Of a stretch of DNA of 64,000 bases, positions 19,147 to 26,530 are shown piece after piece. The position numbers and the translations under genes were made by a program. Where the stretch lies: the NCBI GenBank assembly GCA_033391075.1, contig JAWPMV010000001.1, forward strand, positions 2,294,001 to 2,358,000. The letters are read 5' to 3'. How positions within the stretch are numbered: the stretch's first letter is position 1; each line of letters opens with the position of its first letter. A model generated the notes under the pieces. The model saw only the letters and a list, made by a program, of their open reading frames with translations, was not told where the DNA came from and did no database searches. The DNA comes from Bacteroidia bacterium. Lineage in GTDB: Bacteria; Bacteroidota; Bacteroidia; J057.

Positions 19147-19794
19147 ATGCCCCAGCGTATCACAATTTTTGCTCCAGGTAATACCGATCTCTGGAACCGA
19201 TTTTGGAAAGAAGGCGATGTCTCTGCATTGATTAGCTTATTTGAGCACAATAGTCGAGAATTCTCAGCCACCTGTTTTGGTATCCTCAATGAGGACAGAG
19301 CTGTTGAGCCTAAAGACCTCATCTCCGAACAAATCTTAAAGTTCATTGAGTACCGGAAACGTGGTAAAGATTATTCTCACCGCAAAGATCCCAAATCCTT
19401 CATCAAGGTTTGTCTTTCCAATGCTTGCAAAAGCCATTTAAGAAAAACCAAAATAAAACGCAGCGATGTGGATATACCAGAAAGGGACCCGGATCGAGGA
19501 GCTGAATTTCGGCAAATAGAATCCAGAGAATTGATGGAATACCTGCAAGGGATCATTCGCCACATGGAAGACAATGAAACCAAACAATGCAGGGTATTTG
19601 TCCTCTACCTCATGGATGTTCCGGTAAGAGAGATTGCTGAAAGAGTAGGAGTAGAAGAGCCCTATGTTCACAACTCCATTTCAAAGATTAGAAAAAAGAC
19701 CTTCTTCCAACTTATGACAGATTTGAGAGGAAGAGAATTGATAGATACTTATCCCGTATTCTTTAAAAAATATTTCAAAAATGAATACAGATAA
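19147..19794 (+). CDS. ECF-like RNA polymerase sigma factor
   Basis: A 215-residue sigma-70 family protein with a sigma-2-like N-terminal half (about 20-100, including SFIKVCLSNACKSHLRKTK) and a C-terminal sigma-4 helix-turn-helix (VPVREIAERVGVEEPYVHNSISKIRKK, about 155-185). The sequence is divergent from common FecI-type ECF factors. The ATG at 19147 is preferred to an upstream in-frame TTG. Its last 14 nt overlap the start of the next gene, which fits a sigma/anti-sigma pair. It probably controls this operon. Confidence 0.82.
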   Translation: MPQRITIFAPGNTDLWNRFWKEGDVSALISLFEHNSREFSATCFGILNEDRAVEPKDLISEQILKFIEYRKRGKDYSHRKDPKSFIKVCLSNACKSHLRKTKIKRSDVDIPERDPDRGAEFRQIESRELMEYLQGIIRHMEDNETKQCRVFVLYLMDVPVREIAERVGVEEPYVHNSISKIRKKTFFQLMTDLRGRELIDTYPVFFKKYFKNEYR

Positions 19795-21544
19795 ACATCC
19801 GAATATCAGCTATGAGCGGCTTCTGGCCTATGTGCAGGGAGAGCTTCCGGATGAAATAAGTCTGGAAATTGAAATGCACCTCATGACTCATCCTGAAGAC
19901 AGAGCAGTAGTGGATGGTATCATAGCCATGCGCAAGCGCTTTGCCAATAATGAGGCCCAAATGGAGGCCTTCATGAACGAGCAAGAGGATGCTGTACGCG
20001 AACTGATCCCACAGAATGAGGAGGAGCCTGCCCGCCTGTATGCAATGGCAGGAGCACCTGAACCCGCTGTAGAAAACAAAGTACTTCCCCGCAGAGAAAG
20101 GAATAAATCGGACCTGCACCTGCCTGTTCCCCCAAAAAGGGAGCCCATCATTACCCCAAGTATTAGTCCCAACAGACATGAAGCAAAGAGGCTGGAAAAT
20201 GAATTGACGAGTCGGCAAGCTTCATATCTGAACTATTCAGAATTCAATACCATGAGCGAATCATCTATACCTCCAACGCAGCAAGAAGAAGAAAGCAAGA
20301 CCATCTCTATACCAGAAACCAATTTAGGTATGCTTTCTCCGCTGGATGAAAATGAATTTTTGCATCAGGTACTTTCCCGCCGGAAAGCTGCCAGTCGTAT
20401 TCAGAAAGGTGAAAATGACTTTGAGCAGGACCTGGGTGTGAGAACCAGCCTTTCTTTTGACAGTTTTCCCATTGTGCGTCATACCCTTGAACGGATTGAG
20501 TGGCTGAAGGAAAGGATAGGCGAAAGAAATGAGCACAGCAATAATGGGATTGTACGCGATGCCCTCGATAAATCTCTAAACGGAGACGGCTGGCTCGAAA
20601 AACTGGGTTCAGAATCTGACAATGAAGAAATAAATAAAAACTTTGACAGCGCGGAAAAATACCATAGCTGGAAACGCGAAGTTTTAACCAAATATGTAGG
20701 AGAGCAAAAGGAACAATGGGCCAAATTCTTTGCAAGCGATTATTCCCTGCAAGATGAACTTAGGGATCAGGCCATGTACAAAGAGAACAGCGGTAAATTC
20801 TTCTGGAACTCTTTCGGACTGGGATTGATTTATGTTTTCTGTTCGGTTTATCTCTGGTCAATGATATCGGCCTTTAGCTTCACCCATCTACTACTGGCTT
20901 TAGGCTATGTCTTTATACTGGTCATCTTTCCCGATAGATGGATGCAACAATTATTTGGTAAAGGCCAGGCTCCCATCAGCAATTCCGAAGGGGATATTAT
21001 GGACGAAACGCCTCCTTCCAAATCACTTTTCTGGGTAAGGTTAATGCTGACCTTCTTCCTGAGTTTATCTCTGATTTATGTTAGCGAAGGTTTGCCGGTT
21101 TGGACAGAATATTTCAGCTATTTTGCAGAATACAGTCCTTACTGGCTGATGATCTGGGCCATGAGTTTTGCCCTCCTTCATTTCCTGCCCGCCTATAGAA
21201 GGAAAACGACTCTCTTGTATAAGAATACCATCACGCCTTATCGACGCTTTAAAGCCAATGAGCGAAGCCTGCAACAGCAAAGGTTGATGGAATTGCTGGA
21301 ACAGGGCGACAGATGGAGCAAGGAAATGCTAAGTGATAAAGAAAGGCTCCGCAATGAACGCAATGAAGCCCTCTTCAATGGAGAACTCGTTCGCCGCAAG
21401 CGTATGTACGAAACCCAATTGGAACGACTGGGCTATCTCTATGATCTCGGTATGGGAGGAGAAGAAAGTAGCCTGAATGCTTCTTTCCGCAGACCCAGAA
21501 GTAGAAGAGCCTATACCCAGGAAGATTCCTTAAGAAGCGAATAG
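19781..21544 (+). CDS. Four-TM protein with degenerate anti-sigma-like N terminus
   Basis: Not recognised as a whole. The first 50 residues (SYERLLAYVQGELPDEIS...EMHLMTHPEDRAVVDGI) follow the pattern of zinc-finger anti-sigma domains (ELLxAYxxGELxxE...HLxxCxxC), but the cysteines are absent. A long polar region (about 60-340) with several charged stretches follows, then four transmembrane helices (about 343-365, 367-390, 415-435, 448-470) and a charged, helical, Arg-rich C-terminal tail of about 115 residues. The 14-nt overlap with the sigma gene implies coupling. Inferred role: membrane-bound sensor or anti-sigma partner. Confidence 0.8.
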   Translation: MNTDKHPNISYERLLAYVQGELPDEISLEIEMHLMTHPEDRAVVDGIIAMRKRFANNEAQMEAFMNEQEDAVRELIPQNEEEPARLYAMAGAPEPAVENKVLPRRERNKSDLHLPVPPKREPIITPSISPNRHEAKRLENELTSRQASYLNYSEFNTMSESSIPPTQQEEESKTISIPETNLGMLSPLDENEFLHQVLSRRKAASRIQKGENDFEQDLGVRTSLSFDSFPIVRHTLERIEWLKERIGERNEHSNNGIVRDALDKSLNGDGWLEKLGSESDNEEINKNFDSAEKYHSWKREVLTKYVGEQKEQWAKFFASDYSLQDELRDQAMYKENSGKFFWNSFGLGLIYVFCSVYLWSMISAFSFTHLLLALGYVFILVIFPDRWMQQLFGKGQAPISNSEGDIMDETPPSKSLFWVRLMLTFFLSLSLIYVSEGLPVWTEYFSYFAEYSPYWLMIWAMSFALLHFLPAYRRKTTLLYKNTITPYRRFKANERSLQQQRLMELLEQGDRWSKEMLSDKERLRNERNEALFNGELVRRKRMYETQLERLGYLYDLGMGGEESSLNASFRRPRSRRAYTQEDSLRSE

Positions 21545-21566
21545 ACAAACAACACAGTAAATAATC

Positions 21567-23348
21567 ATGGATAAAATATATCAAATCACCCAACAAGCGG
21601 ATCAGGAAACCCGTGAAGAGGTTCGCCGCGAAGGGAGTGCACAAGCTGAGCTCTATTATGAGTTGGCAGATCGTAGTCGACCCAGTTTCGAAGCGGTACA
21701 AGAGCTCTATTACCTGCTCTCCAAATCTGACTCAGGTGCAGAACTCGAGGAGATGGGGATTGCTTTGCCACCGGATTATTTCCAAAAGCATAAGCAGAAA
21801 TACCTCCATAAGTTCTATGAGAGCATTCGGATGTCCAAGGATGAAGCCGTGCGCAATGGGGTGAATCCGGACATCGCCAATCTGGAGCATTTCATCAATG
21901 GCAAAGAGAATGAATTGCAGTTTCGCAAGAATTACAATAATGATATAGAGGAAGAAAAGAAGAAACTGGAAGCAGATGAATTTTCTGCCAAAAACCTCTG
22001 GTTGTACATCGTCTTTGGAATCCTCCTTTGCTCGGGTGATCTCCTGATGGGAGAGTTTCTGGCAAATCAGGTTTTAGGACTTGGAGCCACCTGGTGGGGA
22101 GGAATTACCCTGGGGATCTTCGGGATTGCTCTGGGAGTAGTCATGGAGATTGTGTTGAGTATGCTCTATAAGAGTTATAAGTGGTTGGCCAGAACGATTA
22201 TGAGTAGCAGCCTTGTCTTTACCATTATCATGTTTGTGGCAATGGGAGTACTGCGCTCCAGTCAGTTTGATATGGCTATCAGCGGAACGGCTTCTTTCGA
22301 TAAAATGTCTCTGATGTTGTTTTTCGTGGGAATGTCCCTGGCAGCTCCGACAGCTTTGGGTTCTGTGCTCTTTATCATACAGAAGAAGTGGGACTGGATG
22401 AGGCGAAAGAAAGAATTAAATCTTAAGCAGCAACATCTCGGATGGTTGATGAATCTTGTCGTGCAGTTTAGAGAACAGTGGAATGAATATGAGCAGATTC
22501 TGGTTTCAGAATTTATCAATGGATATGTATCACGACTGAGTAGCATCATTAATCCCCCTGCTCCTGAACCCCAAATGCAACAAGTAAGTGGTGGACAACA
22601 AGTAGTGGAAAGTGGAGGTGATCTGGTAGCTAGAATGAAAAAGAACGTTCGCCAACATTATAAGTTCTCTATGATCTCTCTCTTGCTCTGTGTGAGTCTG
22701 GCTTCTTGCGGCAACTATGTGAAAGGGGAAAGACAGGACAAAGGCATAGACATTTCTTATATCCTAATGCCAGATCAGGATACAGATCAAACCGCTCTGA
22801 TCAAAAGCCAATTACCTAAAGAAAAAGTGGAGGCTATATCCATTCACCTTCCCTCCGGTAGTGTTGCCAGTTCCTTTGGAGGAGACAAAGAAGTTTCTTT
22901 GGTAGCCAGTCATTATGATGAAAGGAAGACCAATCAGGACCTGAATGCCTTTATCCGGGAAGTACAGAATATACGGGAGAATGGTAGTGAGGAATACGAT
23001 CTCCAACTTTTGGGAACCCTGCTCCACAATGCTTCTGAACAAAGTAATCTGGAAGCCGATCAACGCAAAATCGTGATCTACCTGAATGAAGGCCCAAAGG
23101 AAATCCTCAGTCTGACTGACAAGGAGATACAGGAACAAGCGAAGAAAGACGCTTCCATGTTGAAAGAAAGTCGCTCGCTTCAGTTGCACAATCTTATCGG
23201 AGCCAAAGCCAATCTGCTCTTGGAGATAGAAGAATTACAGGATTCTTATCCGGTAGCAGAAGTTCTCAGAAAGAACAGACTTTATTTCAGAAGACTCCTG
23301 AGCAGTTATCAGGTCTTTCTGGATCAGGTATCAGAATACAATGGCTAG
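21567..23348 (+). CDS. Composite protein: four-TM domain joined to a lipoprotein-like vWA-like domain
   Basis: A 593-residue product in two parts. Residues 1-355 hold a soluble helical N terminus, four transmembrane helices (about 144-164, 173-198, 207-228, 245-270) and a cytoplasmic segment. From Met357 the sequence looks like a fresh lipoprotein start: basic MKKNVRQHYK, hydrophobic ISLLLCV, and lipobox SLASC with Cys381. The remaining about 210 residues alternate strands and helices (DISYILMPDQ, KIVIYLNEG) in a vWA-like order without a clear metal site, and end in a coiled-coil-like segment. Either this is one protein with a fifth membrane helix or an internal start yields a lipoprotein. 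Function unknown. Confidence 0.78.
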   Translation: MDKIYQITQQADQETREEVRREGSAQAELYYELADRSRPSFEAVQELYYLLSKSDSGAELEEMGIALPPDYFQKHKQKYLHKFYESIRMSKDEAVRNGVNPDIANLEHFINGKENELQFRKNYNNDIEEEKKKLEADEFSAKNLWLYIVFGILLCSGDLLMGEFLANQVLGLGATWWGGITLGIFGIALGVVMEIVLSMLYKSYKWLARTIMSSSLVFTIIMFVAMGVLRSSQFDMAISGTASFDKMSLMLFFVGMSLAAPTALGSVLFIIQKKWDWMRRKKELNLKQQHLGWLMNLVVQFREQWNEYEQILVSEFINGYVSRLSSIINPPAPEPQMQQVSGGQQVVESGGDLVARMKKNVRQHYKFSMISLLLCVSLASCGNYVKGERQDKGIDISYILMPDQDTDQTALIKSQLPKEKVEAISIHLPSGSVASSFGGDKEVSLVASHYDERKTNQDLNAFIREVQNIRENGSEEYDLQLLGTLLHNASEQSNLEADQRKIVIYLNEGPKEILSLTDKEIQEQAKKDASMLKESRSLQLHNLIGAKANLLLEIEELQDSYPVAEVLRKNRLYFRRLLSSYQVFLDQVSEYNG

Positions 23349-23351
23349 AAC

Positions 23352-24203
23352 ATGCTAGACCATCAAAGATATTATCTCATATTACTCGGGGCTTTGGCCC
23401 TGATAGGTGGCACGATCTATCTGGCTTTACCCCAACTGAGTTATGCCAGTGGTAAACTGCTGGATGCTGAAAAGGATCGCTGGGAGCGTCATGAATTGGG
23501 ACCTCGCAATGTCTCTGTACTTCATGTAGACTTTACCCAAAGCGATACCACCATTGCCTTGAAAAATGGCCCCTATCGAAAACTACTGACCCAGGTGCTG
23601 AAAAAGGACCTGCATAGTGAAAGGGATGTCATGGCAGCCTATTTGGTACACAATGAAACCCACAACAATCAACCTTTCTATGCAACTCATTCTGTTTTAA
23701 TGGATGAAGAATTATTAAATGAAAGTGCCGGGAATGTTGTGGCCCAAATCCATCAGGATATGTGTCTGGAGCGCTTTGACTCTCTTTCCAATCTCTATGC
23801 ACATCAGGAAGCTCTGGTAATCGAAGATTCCAGTCTGATGCGCTACACCAATGTGATTGGAGCATTACAAAATGCGGCAAATTATTTTCGGAGATATGCC
23901 ATAGACAAGGATCAGAAGAAAGTCTATTTCCTCTCAGATATGCGAGAGAACTCGGTTTTTCTCACTCCAGTTGCGAGGGTAGATAATTTGACGGCCAAAG
24001 ATCAGATCGATAGTCTCGTTCAGGTTTCCTTACATAGACTCAGTAATCTCACGGATGTGGAAAGCGAACTCGAAGGAGCTGAAATCTATATTCTAACGCC
24101 TAATGAACATCTATACAGTTCCAAAGGCAGAAACTTCACCCGCATGTTTTGGGAGAAATTTTTCCTCGAAGAACTTCAATGCAAAAGTGTCTTTTTCCAA
24201 TAA
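23352..24203 (+). CDS. Membrane-anchored vWA-like protein
   Basis: A 283-residue protein starting 3 nt after the previous stop. One N-terminal membrane anchor (about 8-28) is followed by an extracytoplasmic domain. Strand 1 reads VLHVDFTQSDTT, giving a D-x-T-x-S arrangement like the metal-binding MIDAS site of von Willebrand A domains. A later strand reads KKVYFLSDMRENS, the equivalent of the fourth vWA strand. No database family is recalled. It belongs to the sigma/vWA operon and may bind a partner or surface ligand through a divalent metal. Confidence 0.77.
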   Translation: MLDHQRYYLILLGALALIGGTIYLALPQLSYASGKLLDAEKDRWERHELGPRNVSVLHVDFTQSDTTIALKNGPYRKLLTQVLKKDLHSERDVMAAYLVHNETHNNQPFYATHSVLMDEELLNESAGNVVAQIHQDMCLERFDSLSNLYAHQEALVIEDSSLMRYTNVIGALQNAANYFRRYAIDKDQKKVYFLSDMRENSVFLTPVARVDNLTAKDQIDSLVQVSLHRLSNLTDVESELEGAEIYILTPNEHLYSSKGRNFTRMFWEKFFLEELQCKSVFFQ

Positions 24204-24226
24204 TTCAGAAAGCATTCAAAACGAAT

Positions 24227-25114
24227 ATGAAAACCCATAGTCTTCTTATTATTATCCTAAGTATCCTCTGTTTGCCTGTATTCCAGTCTTGTGAATCTCA
24301 GGGAGCCAGCGAATCAACAGAGATCGTATGTAATCCGCAGATGGTCTTTCCTGAAGATCATGGAAAGTCCCAAAAGCACAGCCTCGTATTTATAGACCTG
24401 ACAGATCCCAGCATTTATGGGGAGCAAGCGAGGTCTTACTTGAAAAAAGTAATGGAGCAAAGGCTTTCTACTTCGGAGGATCGTCGTGCAAATACCAAAC
24501 AAGAGGCGGACAAACTGCAAATCTTCTTTATTACGGCCAATACTGCCACGACCCAAACCATGTCTGCCGCGAATCTTGATCTGCGGACTATGCCATTGGG
24601 AGAATTGGTGGAAGGTCAAACCATTATCAATTCCAGCAAGAAGCGCAGATATACCTGTGAATTGCAGGACTTTATTGCAGGAAATTTGGGAGTTGTAGAC
24701 CAGAAAGTAAAAGCTGCCCAACAGCAGAACGAAGATGTAAATAGTGATGTGCTGGGTATGTTTTATCTGGCTGATCGAGAATTCAAACGCTCAACAGCTG
24801 AGGATAAAGCCATTTTCGTGATTTCTGATATGGAGCAGTTTTGCCAGAATGGAGGCTATTTTCAATGCAAGAATACCCGAATTTGCTCTTCGGGATGTAG
24901 AGAAGTACATGCGCAGGGAGATGCCAAATCCGATGCAAACATTATCAAAGACAAATTAGGCGCAAAGCTGGCCTTGAATGGAGTGGGTTTCCATTACATG
25001 AGAGGTGATCGCGCCATTGGAAATACAAACCAGGGGGTTCTGAATTTTATCCAGGATTACTGGTCAGGCCTTTCCGGAGAATTAGGACTGAAAAGCTATG
25101 ATAAAATTCATTAG
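24227..25114 (+). CDS. vWA-like lipoprotein
   Basis: A 295-residue lipoprotein (MKTHSLLIII..., lipobox FQSC, Cys about 22). The ATG at 24227 is chosen because it opens this signal peptide; an upstream TTG at 24149 would lie inside the preceding gene. The domain has strand 1 HSLVFIDLTDPS (Asp and Thr of a MIDAS-like loop), strand 2 LQIFFITAN, and strand 4 AIFVISDMEQF. A cysteine-rich insert (QFCQNGGYFQCKNTRICSSGC) follows strand 4 and probably forms disulfides. It resembles its neighbour at 23352 in plan, which suggests old gene duplication. Confidence 0.78.
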   Translation: MKTHSLLIIILSILCLPVFQSCESQGASESTEIVCNPQMVFPEDHGKSQKHSLVFIDLTDPSIYGEQARSYLKKVMEQRLSTSEDRRANTKQEADKLQIFFITANTATTQTMSAANLDLRTMPLGELVEGQTIINSSKKRRYTCELQDFIAGNLGVVDQKVKAAQQQNEDVNSDVLGMFYLADREFKRSTAEDKAIFVISDMEQFCQNGGYFQCKNTRICSSGCREVHAQGDAKSDANIIKDKLGAKLALNGVGFHYMRGDRAIGNTNQGVLNFIQDYWSGLSGELGLKSYDKIH

Positions 25115-25117
25115 CAG

Positions 25118-26530
25118 ATGAACATACAGCCACTTGATACGCATATTCAATGGGGCTTTTATTCCTCCCTTGCGCCGAAGCGGCAGGGGGGGATGTTCCC
25201 TTTTATTCTGAAATTACCTCTGCTCTTTATCCTGATATTCTTCTCCTGCACTAGCGAAGAACCGGTTATGCAGGATCATAGCAAGACCTATTACAATGGA
25301 GATATGGGCCTGGTTTCTGAAAACGGGGTCATGCTCTTTGTTCCTTCGGGTACCTTGATGAAAGGAAAAAGTGTTCATGAAGGGCCTTTGTGGGTGGATG
25401 TTGCTGAATATGAAAAACTCAAATCCACCTTTGCCCCAGACGATGATCAGTTAATTCAGGCCATACAAAATCCGCGAGACCTTTTTGTGCTACGTTCCCA
25501 GAAGGATTCTTTAATCTCGGATTTACACATATCAAATGGCAAGGAAATATTACTTTTTTTGCCCTATCATGGAAAAAGAGGGGATGAATATGAATTGATG
25601 ACTTCACCCAAAGAGTGGATTGATGATCTCTTTCCGGAAGGCTTCATGGGTTCTGAACATCATTTGAGTGGTTTTAGCATTACGGATCATTCAGAATCCA
25701 ATCTGGAGCGATTGATTTACCATGCCACAGACAAAGACGAAAAAAGAGCTGCTCGAACTTTTCTTGAGAAAGAAAAAAGTTTCAAGGAATTGCAAAACTT
25801 CTTAAGTGCCAATTGGACGCTTGCTCAGCGACGATTTAAGGCCAGCCAGGAAGATTATCAGGACGAAGGAGATGTCCCCAGAGATGTAGGTTATTATGTG
25901 CTCTCCATGAACTATCTCCGAGATCCACCTGCTGATTCTACCCTGATCTATGCCTTTCGTGATCATTTGGGAGAAGAGGCTTTTGTGATGATGGACTGGA
26001 CAGGAAGTATGTATGCCTTTCGGGCGGAATTGACGGAATTCCTTAAGCACAATACAGAAGAAAAAAAGCTGAAATACCTGACTTTTTTCAATGACCGCTA
26101 CTGTGACTTTCCCCGAGAGCCGGGCAATTTTGAAGGAGTCTTCACCCATGAGGATTCTTTCCCTACTAATTCAGAAGCCAGTCAACTCATGCATCTGTGC
26201 GAAACCACCGGAAGTGGAGGAGGGGAGCTGGAAGAAAATGATCTGGAGGCTATTCTTACTTCGATGGAACGTGTGAAAGCGAATCAATACAAGGAAATTG
26301 CATTGGTCATCGACAATAATGCACCTCCCAAAGACATGGTCCTATTACCCCGTATCAAACTCCCTAAAGGCATGATATTCAATATGTTTGTCTGTCGGGC
26401 GAACTCGATTGATGAAGTACATCCTTCGTACATGGATGTGGCGAGAAAGTTTGGAGGGAATATAATTGTAGTGAGTACAGAAGGTATTGTGAAGAAGTCG
26501 ATTTTTGAAATCGATTCAGAAGGGATTTAG
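25118..26530 (+). CDS. vWA-domain lipoprotein with intact MIDAS
   Basis: A 470-residue product starting 3 nt after the previous stop. Met26 (25193) begins a standard lipoprotein signal (MFPFILKLPL, lipobox IFFSC), so translation may really start there; the first 25 codons contain a GC-rich palindrome. An N-terminal domain (about 55-270) shows beta-rich sequence with VMLFVPSGTL. The C-terminal vWA domain has the canonical DxTGS metal site (VMMDWTGSMYAF, about residue 290), strand 2 LKYLTFFNDRYC and strand 4 KEIALVIDNN, ending with FGGNIIVVS. Last gene of the sigma/vWA operon, convergent to the permease gene. Confidence 0.83.
   Translation: MNIQPLDTHIQWGFYSSLAPKRQGGMFPFILKLPLLFILIFFSCTSEEPVMQDHSKTYYNGDMGLVSENGVMLFVPSGTLMKGKSVHEGPLWVDVAEYEKLKSTFAPDDDQLIQAIQNPRDLFVLRSQKDSLISDLHISNGKEILLFLPYHGKRGDEYELMTSPKEWIDDLFPEGFMGSEHHLSGFSITDHSESNLERLIYHATDKDEKRAARTFLEKEKSFKELQNFLSANWTLAQRRFKASQEDYQDEGDVPRDVGYYVLSMNYLRDPPADSTLIYAFRDHLGEEAFVMMDWTGSMYAFRAELTEFLKHNTEEKKLKYLTFFNDRYCDFPREPGNFEGVFTHEDSFPTNSEASQLMHLCETTGSGGGELEENDLEAILTSMERVKANQYKEIALVIDNNAPPKDMVLLPRIKLPKGMIFNMFVCRANSIDEVHPSYMDVARKFGGNIIVVSTEGIVKKSIFEIDSEGI
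25163..25193. repeat. GC-rich palindromic element in the 5' part of the vWA lipoprotein gene
   Basis: TCCTCCCTTGC and GCAGGGGGGGA form an imperfect 11-bp stem around GCCGAAGCG. It ends at the second possible start codon (ATG 25193). It looks like a small dispersed palindrome inserted at the start of the gene. Confidence 0.5.

What the first reader, a model, noticed from the sequence alone, without database searches (positions are those of the whole stretch)
19147..26530. Undescribed six-gene operon: ECF-like sigma factor plus four consecutive vWA-like envelope proteins
Six same-strand genes with overlaps or gaps of only 3-23 nt begin with a sigma factor and a membrane partner with an anti-sigma-like N terminus. 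They then encode four products that each carry, outside the cytoplasm, a strand order like von Willebrand A: a first strand with Asp/Thr/Ser loop (DFTQS, DLTDPS, DWTGS), and a later strand such as YFLSDM, FVISDM or ALVIDN. Two or three are lipoproteins. There is no MoxR ATPase, so this is not the usual MoxR-vWA arrangement, nor BatA/B. A working idea is a cell-envelope sensor or adhesion assembly under its own sigma factor.
Basis: partly seen in the sequence, partly recalled or inferred. Interest (0 to 1): 0.82.

Follow-up and report, generated by a model that had tools for sequence, protein, structure and literature searches.

The report
Sigma factor tied to envelope module
A six-gene bacterial operon joins a gene-control switch (a sigma factor and its probable inhibitor) to an unnamed set of membrane proteins and exported lipoproteins, part of which also occurs without the switch in distant bacteria, and which may be a device for sensing the cell envelope.

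Summary
The six packed genes are real. Gene 1 is an ECF-type sigma factor; gene 2 begins with an anti-sigma-like stretch (weakly supported). New here: genes 4 and 5 belong to one lipoprotein family without a curated name. It keeps the five MIDAS-type positions of a von Willebrand A (vWA) site and occurs in 126 of 150 genomes of another family of the same class. The N-terminal part of gene 3 is homologous to a four-segment membrane protein (B) standing directly before such a lipoprotein in five distant loci, always in the order A, B, lipoprotein; two, perhaps three, of the five lie among type III CRISPR genes. Gene 2 stands in A's place without sequence support. Gene 6 has a vWA fold, from a different and widespread unnamed family. 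That genes 4 and 5 fold as vWA, and that the gene 3 end is a third lipoprotein, is unproven. The six-gene order was seen in no other genome searched; the 12 same-family genomes gave no match to genes 1, 4, 5 or the body of gene 2 (gene 3 was not searched there). Best reading: an envelope-sensing module coupled to a sigma factor. Mechanism inferred.

The parts
19147..19794 (+). Gene 1: ECF-type sigma factor, 215 aa
   Evidence: TIGR02937 44.7 bits against cut-off 42.9; Pfam regions 2 and 4 below cut-off; PHROG 1740 sigma factor 3.6e-8
19781..21544 (+). Gene 2: 587 aa, anti-sigma-like N-terminus, long cytoplasmic helical part, four membrane segments, in the place of membrane protein A
   Evidence: TIGR02451 E 0.0021; G001 match 3.6e-4 over residues 13-79; segments at 340, 358, 415, 455; no sequence support for homology to A (14 of 50 controls reach its score)
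21567..23348 (+). Gene 3: 593 aa. Residues 1-360 homologous to membrane protein B; then an in-frame fifth hydrophobic segment with lipobox LASC and an exported-type domain of about 210 aa
   Evidence: B profile: probability 93.3%, score 59.0, 0 of 50 controls, best control 21.8; G169 8.1e-4 genome-wide, 1.3e-6; lipobox 378-381; C-terminus against the lipoprotein family p 0.0058, 3 of 50 controls reach it
23352..24203 (+). Gene 4: 283 aa, N-terminal anchor, member of the vWA-like lipoprotein family (no Cys)
   Evidence: BLASTP to P0007 4e-6; all five MIDAS-type positions kept
24227..25114 (+). Gene 5: 295 aa lipoprotein of the same family
   Evidence: BLASTP to P0010 1e-7 and P0007 1e-6; Cys in the family Cys column; MIDAS-type positions with a gap at +4 (Ser one place later) and Ser for Thr
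25118..26530 (+). Gene 6: 470 aa, probable lipoprotein with a C-terminal vWA domain (about residues 285-460, window 25970-26497) of a widespread unnamed Bacteroidota family
   Evidence: 40 of 100 relatives at E <= 0.1; 312 confirmed loci; AlphaFold2 block means 77-96 over residues 281-450; Z 12.2 to integrin beta-8, rmsd 3.4, 159 aligned

Best explanation
The operon is an envelope-sensing system that controls its own sigma factor. Its core is a module found elsewhere: a membrane protein A, a membrane protein B, and one or more exported vWA-like lipoproteins. Inferred mechanism: the exported proteins (genes 4 and 5, perhaps the end of gene 3) and the vWA protein of gene 6 bind a peptide, protein or surface ligand through a metal-dependent MIDAS-type site outside the inner membrane; binding changes the membrane pair of genes 2 and 3; the anti-sigma stretch on the cytoplasmic N-terminus of gene 2 then lets go of the sigma factor of gene 1, which transcribes this operon and perhaps other genes. 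Shown: operon anatomy, the sigma factor, family membership of the N-terminal part of gene 3 and of genes 4 and 5, the conserved order B then lipoprotein, the vWA fold of gene 6. Inferred: gene 2 as A, sigma/anti-sigma pairing, vWA fold of genes 4 and 5, metal and ligand binding, signal direction, self-control.
For: ECF model over cut-off; anti-sigma-like start of gene 2 overlapping the sigma gene; genes 4 and 5 in one family with MIDAS-type positions D 42/42, S/T 42/42, S 39/42, T/S 42/42, D 42/42 rows (41 distinct proteins, as P0007 and the L160 row are the same); gene 3 homologous to B, which stands directly before the lipoprotein in all five A-B-lipoprotein loci; vWA fold of gene 6. MIDAS sites bind extended peptides in known vWA proteins (PMC7159879, passages).
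Against: Gene 2 shows no sequence homology to A. The anti-sigma match is far under its cut-off and lacks the Hx3Cx2C motif (by eye), though zinc-free domains are common (PMC7406223, passages). None of the A-B-lipoprotein loci was seen to hold a sigma gene next to the module (by annotation and by eye). In the f60 genomes the lipoprotein stands without A or B. No fold for genes 4 and 5, and only 1 of 37 family members touches a Pfam vWA model, at 0.032. No Bacteroidota-type promoter pattern was found upstream.
Confidence: 0.4

Rival explanations
1. The A-B-lipoprotein module is a membrane-acting defence effector; in Rhodothermus it serves a type III CRISPR system, and here it is put under a sigma factor instead.
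For: On pRMAR01 and pRHOM17201 the module lies among csm genes and 4 nt or less before csx2; a third locus, L239, looks alike by eye.
Against: All three are one genus. In G132 (L240) no CRISPR gene was seen by eye; G169 (L238) was not tested, its other ORFs being poorly called. The lipoprotein is present in 126 of 150 genomes of f60, mostly one copy each, which looks like a housekeeping gene. PADLOC gives only weak, coiled-coil-type matches for B, none for A, and 0.0005 to a Pycsar cyclase model for P0007.
Confidence: 0.2
2. A structural or envelope-maintenance assembly (transport, lipoprotein sorting, attachment) whose genes happen to be transcribed with a sigma factor that serves other targets; the vWA domains hold parts together and sense nothing.
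For: Lipoprotein family near-constant in f60 without A, B or a sigma gene; gene 6 relatives stand alone in many genomes.
Against: Gene 2 carries the anti-sigma-like start and overlaps the sigma gene, which points to signalling.
Confidence: 0.25
3. A recently gathered, lineage-bound set of genes, partly drifting, without a joint function.
For: The six-gene order was seen in no other genome searched; the 12 same-family genomes gave no match to genes 1, 4, 5; gene 3's end and gene 5's motif look drifted.
Against: Six intact, tightly packed frames, G+C like the surroundings, MIDAS-type residues of genes 4 to 6 largely kept, and the order B then lipoprotein shared with distant genomes.
Confidence: 0.1

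Closest known systems
ECF sigma factor with class I (often membrane-bound) anti-sigma factor
   Same: ECF gene overlapping a gene whose N-terminus is anti-sigma-like and which has membrane segments
   Different: Four membrane segments, a long helical cytoplasmic part, and following membrane and vWA-like lipoprotein genes; PMC7406223 (passages) reports class I neighbours for only 6% of Bacteroidetes ECFs
   Same: Gene 3 N-terminal part is homologous to B and genes 4 and 5 to the lipoprotein, in the same order
   Different: No sigma gene seen there; A is not detectably homologous to gene 2; one lipoprotein gene instead of two or three; no gene 6; type III CRISPR genes around two, perhaps three, of the five
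MoxR-vWA ternary systems and Bat operons
   Same: Several vWA-type products
   Different: No MoxR ATPase among the six products; exported vWA parts; a sigma factor

Membership tests
ECF sigma factor (TIGR02937) | Score over the curated cut-off, regions 2 and 4 present | tested here: met
   44.7 bits against 42.9, residues 27-184; Pfam region models match at 0.037 and 0.00048, below their own cut-offs
Class I anti-sigma factor | N-terminal anti-sigma domain next to an ECF gene | tested here: inconclusive
   TIGR02451 E 0.0021, 17.9 bits against cut-off 124.5; zf-HC2 E 0.14; G001 match 3.6e-4
Class I anti-sigma factor | Binds and inhibits the sigma factor | not testable with these tools
   needs co-folding or binding assay
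vWA domain (gene 6) | vWA fold with D-x-[ST]-x-S and a second Asp | tested here: met
   D293, T295, S297, D399 invariant in the alignment; Z 12.2, rmsd 3.4, 159 aligned
vWA domain (genes 4, 5) | MIDAS-type residues | tested here: met
   five positions conserved in 42 rows (41 distinct proteins); gene 4 keeps all five, gene 5 has a gap at +4 and Ser for Thr
vWA domain (genes 4, 5) | vWA fold | tested here: inconclusive
   gene 4 model without alignment, pLDDT 45, no useful match; profile against gene 6 family p 0.33; no PDB match; 1 of 37 members at 0.032 to Pfam VWA_2
MoxR-vWA / Bat systems | MoxR AAA+ ATPase in the operon | tested here: not met
   no AAA+ match among the six products up to E 1; the rest of the window was not scanned
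A-B-lipoprotein module | B and lipoprotein homologues in that order | tested here: met
   lipoprotein; B
A-B-lipoprotein module | A homologue before B | tested here: inconclusive
   gene 2 has the place and four membrane segments but 14 of 50 controls reach its profile score and 70 of 400 shuffles its pairwise score

The most novel reading that the evidence does not exclude
Membrane A, membrane B and the vWA-like lipoprotein form an unrecognised, mobile transmembrane signalling cassette with an exchangeable cytoplasmic output: here it drives an ECF sigma factor through a fused anti-sigma stretch, while in Rhodothermus it is joined to type III CRISPR signalling. Gene 3 would be a polytopic protein that carries its own lipoprotein at the C-terminus, perhaps freed at an internal lipobox.
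Probability: 0.25. Interest if true: 0.8.

Novelty: new variant of a known kind. Interest (0 to 1): 0.58.

Why it matters
If right, it adds to ECF signalling a sensor arm that the curated libraries searched do not describe, in a phylum where few ECFs have a class I anti-sigma neighbour (PMC7406223, passages). It brings out a lipoprotein family kept in 126 of 150 genomes of one family and a testable link between an envelope module and type III CRISPR loci.

Tried and rejected
Close relatives: P0004 (gene 3) in genome contigs, none; P0001 (gene 5), P0002 (gene 4), P0005 (gene 2), P0006 (gene 1) and P0010 in viral contigs, none; P0003 (gene 6), P0001 and P0002 in plasmids, none; P0009 and P0010 in plasmids, only the two R. 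marinus plasmids; P0007 in phages, none, in plasmids also a Rhizobium match at 0.08, taken as chance.

Weak single hits: gene 5 (5 besides itself, up to 0.1; 4 besides itself, up to 0.01) were taken as chance; only L011 was looked at (another kind of ORF). Gene 3 had three hits besides itself: G169 (8.1e-4) was borne out later; G192 (5.1e-4, a better score) and G083 (0.008) were not followed up. Gene 2's two family hits (G001, G004) cover its N-terminus; L018 gave no ORF to read.

All vWA-like products as one series: not supported for gene 6 with genes 4/5 (p 0.33; gene 5 alone against the gene 6 family E 0.069 at the first strand) nor for gene 6 with the gene 3 end (48 of 50 controls reach the score). 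The gene 3 end as a lipoprotein copy stays open: p 0.027 and 0.0058, but 3 of 50 secreted controls reach it and hmmsearch leaves it in the background (E 1.5). Gene 3 against P0009 by pairwise score alone was marginal: 9 of 400 shuffles, 18 and 3 of 163 controls.

The gene 4 fold search is uninformative (best Z 5.0, poor model). Promoter and terminator scans were at shuffle level. In the 80 gene 6 loci none of genes 2 to 5 had a match at E <= 0.1; the sigma gene had two weak ones. In 20 unnamed regions only gene 6 matched, in 18 of 20 (the ORF picker missed two). Rows dropped: L198 (lipoprotein not located by the script) and L204 (left out of A6); both 39- and 42-row alignments hold P0007 twice (as L160). 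Paper searches with nothing to the point (listings).
Full report
Anatomy. Six plus-strand ORFs fill 19147-26530: gene 1 (215 aa), gene 2 (587), gene 3 (593), gene 4 (283), gene 5 (295 from the ATG at 24227; P0001 carries one codon more) and gene 6 (470). Genes 1 and 2 overlap by 14 nt; the other gaps are 22, 3, 23 and 3 nt. On both sides lie minus-strand genes that look like a sulfatase and an FtsX-type permease (by eye). G+C equals the surroundings. The window is G000:C1:2294001-2358000 of a 9.49-Mb genome. The class is inferred to be Bacteroidia, since a same-family contig (G006:C61, 41626 bases) has the length and range of a named Bacteroidia MAG contig (L085).

Genes 1 and 2. Gene 1 passes the general ECF model but not the Pfam region cut-offs; none of the other 99 genomes in a set of 100 matches it at E <= 1e-6. 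Gene 2 begins with an anti-sigma-like stretch: TIGR02451 at 0.0021, far under its cut-off, and 3.6e-4 to a G001 protein that starts at the end of a sigma-like gene (sigma by eye). It then has four membrane segments. PMC7406223 (passages) says that zinc-free anti-sigma domains are common and that 6% of Bacteroidetes ECFs have such a neighbour.

Gene 6. Its C-terminal domain belongs to a widespread family: 40 of 100 genomes (own included) at E <= 0.1; 312 confirmed loci in genome contigs, the best 80 kept. Pfam and NCBIfam give nothing over cut-off for gene 6 or the relatives tried. A 68-row model has mean pLDDT 61.3, with block means of 77-96 over residues 281-450. Foldseek has one match below 0.001, Ku80; the second look gives Z 12.2 (rmsd 3.4, 159 aligned) to integrin beta-8, with TFIIH, Rpn10 and NorD among the next rows. 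D293, T295, S297 and D399 are invariant.

Genes 4 and 5. Alone they looked like orphans: gene 4 matched only itself in 60 genomes; gene 5 had only weak partial matches besides itself. In 390 phylum genomes gene 4 found one other match, G263, E 0.0037, in a 282-codon frame. That protein (P0007, a lipoprotein) matches gene 4 at 4e-6 and gene 5 at 1e-6, and finds a Rhodothermus marinus plasmid protein (P0010) at 5e-16, which matches gene 5 at 1e-7 over nearly its whole length; these pairwise E-values are for single comparisons. A four-row profile found the family in 126 of 150 genomes and 29 of 36 genera of G263's family f60, but in 2 of 100 relatives of the window genome: itself and a partial match at 0.0016. 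A 37-row profile found it in 6 of 147 phylum genomes: itself, three of genus g117, G169 and G194. G085's place equals that of the gene on pRMAR01, so g117 is taken to be Rhodothermus. In 42 aligned rows (41 distinct proteins) the MIDAS-type positions read D 42, S/T 42, S 39, T/S 42, D 42; they are among the most conserved columns.

Gene 3 and the order. On pRMAR01 and pRHOM17201 the lipoprotein follows two four-segment membrane proteins, A and B. The same order on one strand stands in G081, G132 and G169: five loci. Gene 3 matches B: at 8.1e-4 in G169 in a search made before the module was known (G192 scored slightly better there and was not followed up); at 1.3e-6 in G169 and 4.6e-4 in G132 against fetched loci, with none at <= 0.05 in the other three by tblastn; at 0.008 with P0009; and by profile with probability 93.3% and score 59.0 against a best of 21.8 in 50 multi-segment controls. 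Segment starts agree (gene 3: 139, 176, 207, 247; P0009: 137, 177, 210, 267). Gene 2 stands where A stands, also with four segments, but without sequence support. G194 has a six-segment protein directly before a family member.

The end of gene 3. It runs on in frame through a fifth hydrophobic segment with lipobox LASC into about 210 residues. A fused third lipoprotein would fit, but 3 of 50 secreted controls reach its profile score and hmmsearch leaves it in the background.

Limits. In 36 f60 loci (lipoprotein located in 35) no A or B relative was found, so the lipoprotein also exists without them. Two of the five triads lie in annotated type III-A loci, a third looks so by eye, all of one genus; G132 showed none by eye and G169 was not tested. 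Libraries give A, B and the lipoprotein no name (coiled-coil-type matches only). Absence from print rests and word searches in PMC11229360 and PMC7159879; subscription papers were not covered.

Reading. The module probably senses something outside the inner membrane and here reports to a sigma factor. Anatomy and homologies are shown; signalling, metal binding and self-control are inference.

Noticed in passing
window 25970-26497; loci L079-L158; own paralogues G000:C1:1286830-1287276 and 3066953-3067444: An exported vWA family with the signature DWTGSMY, without a curated name, has 312 confirmed loci in genome contigs. Several same-family loci have it next to an SDR-like and an 82-86-aa LSm-like gene (by eye).
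   Followed up: partly
L161:7132-10819 (R. marinus pRMAR01): Two membrane proteins and a vWA-like lipoprotein sit inside a type III-A CRISPR locus, just before csx2.
   Followed up: partly
L240:4181-7644: In G132 the same triad stands near an MntR-like regulator (329.5 bits, cut-off 350) and ABC-transporter-like membrane genes (by eye) and not among CRISPR genes recognised by eye.
   Followed up: no
f60 loci, e.g. L199:7180-8133: A secreted protein of about 318 aa stands directly before the lipoprotein gene in 12 of the 35 loci where the lipoprotein was located.
   Followed up: no
L241:7349-9603: In G194 a six-segment membrane protein is directly followed by a distant member of the lipoprotein family.
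   Followed up: partly
window 22612-22712: Inside gene 3 a GGAGGTGAT stretch precedes an in-frame ATG that would start an ordinary lipoprotein signal (by eye); separate translation of the gene 3 end is possible.
   Followed up: no
G192:C298:34067-34207: Gene 3 residues 75-120 match here at 5.1e-4 (41% identity) in a 1548-codon frame.
   Followed up: no
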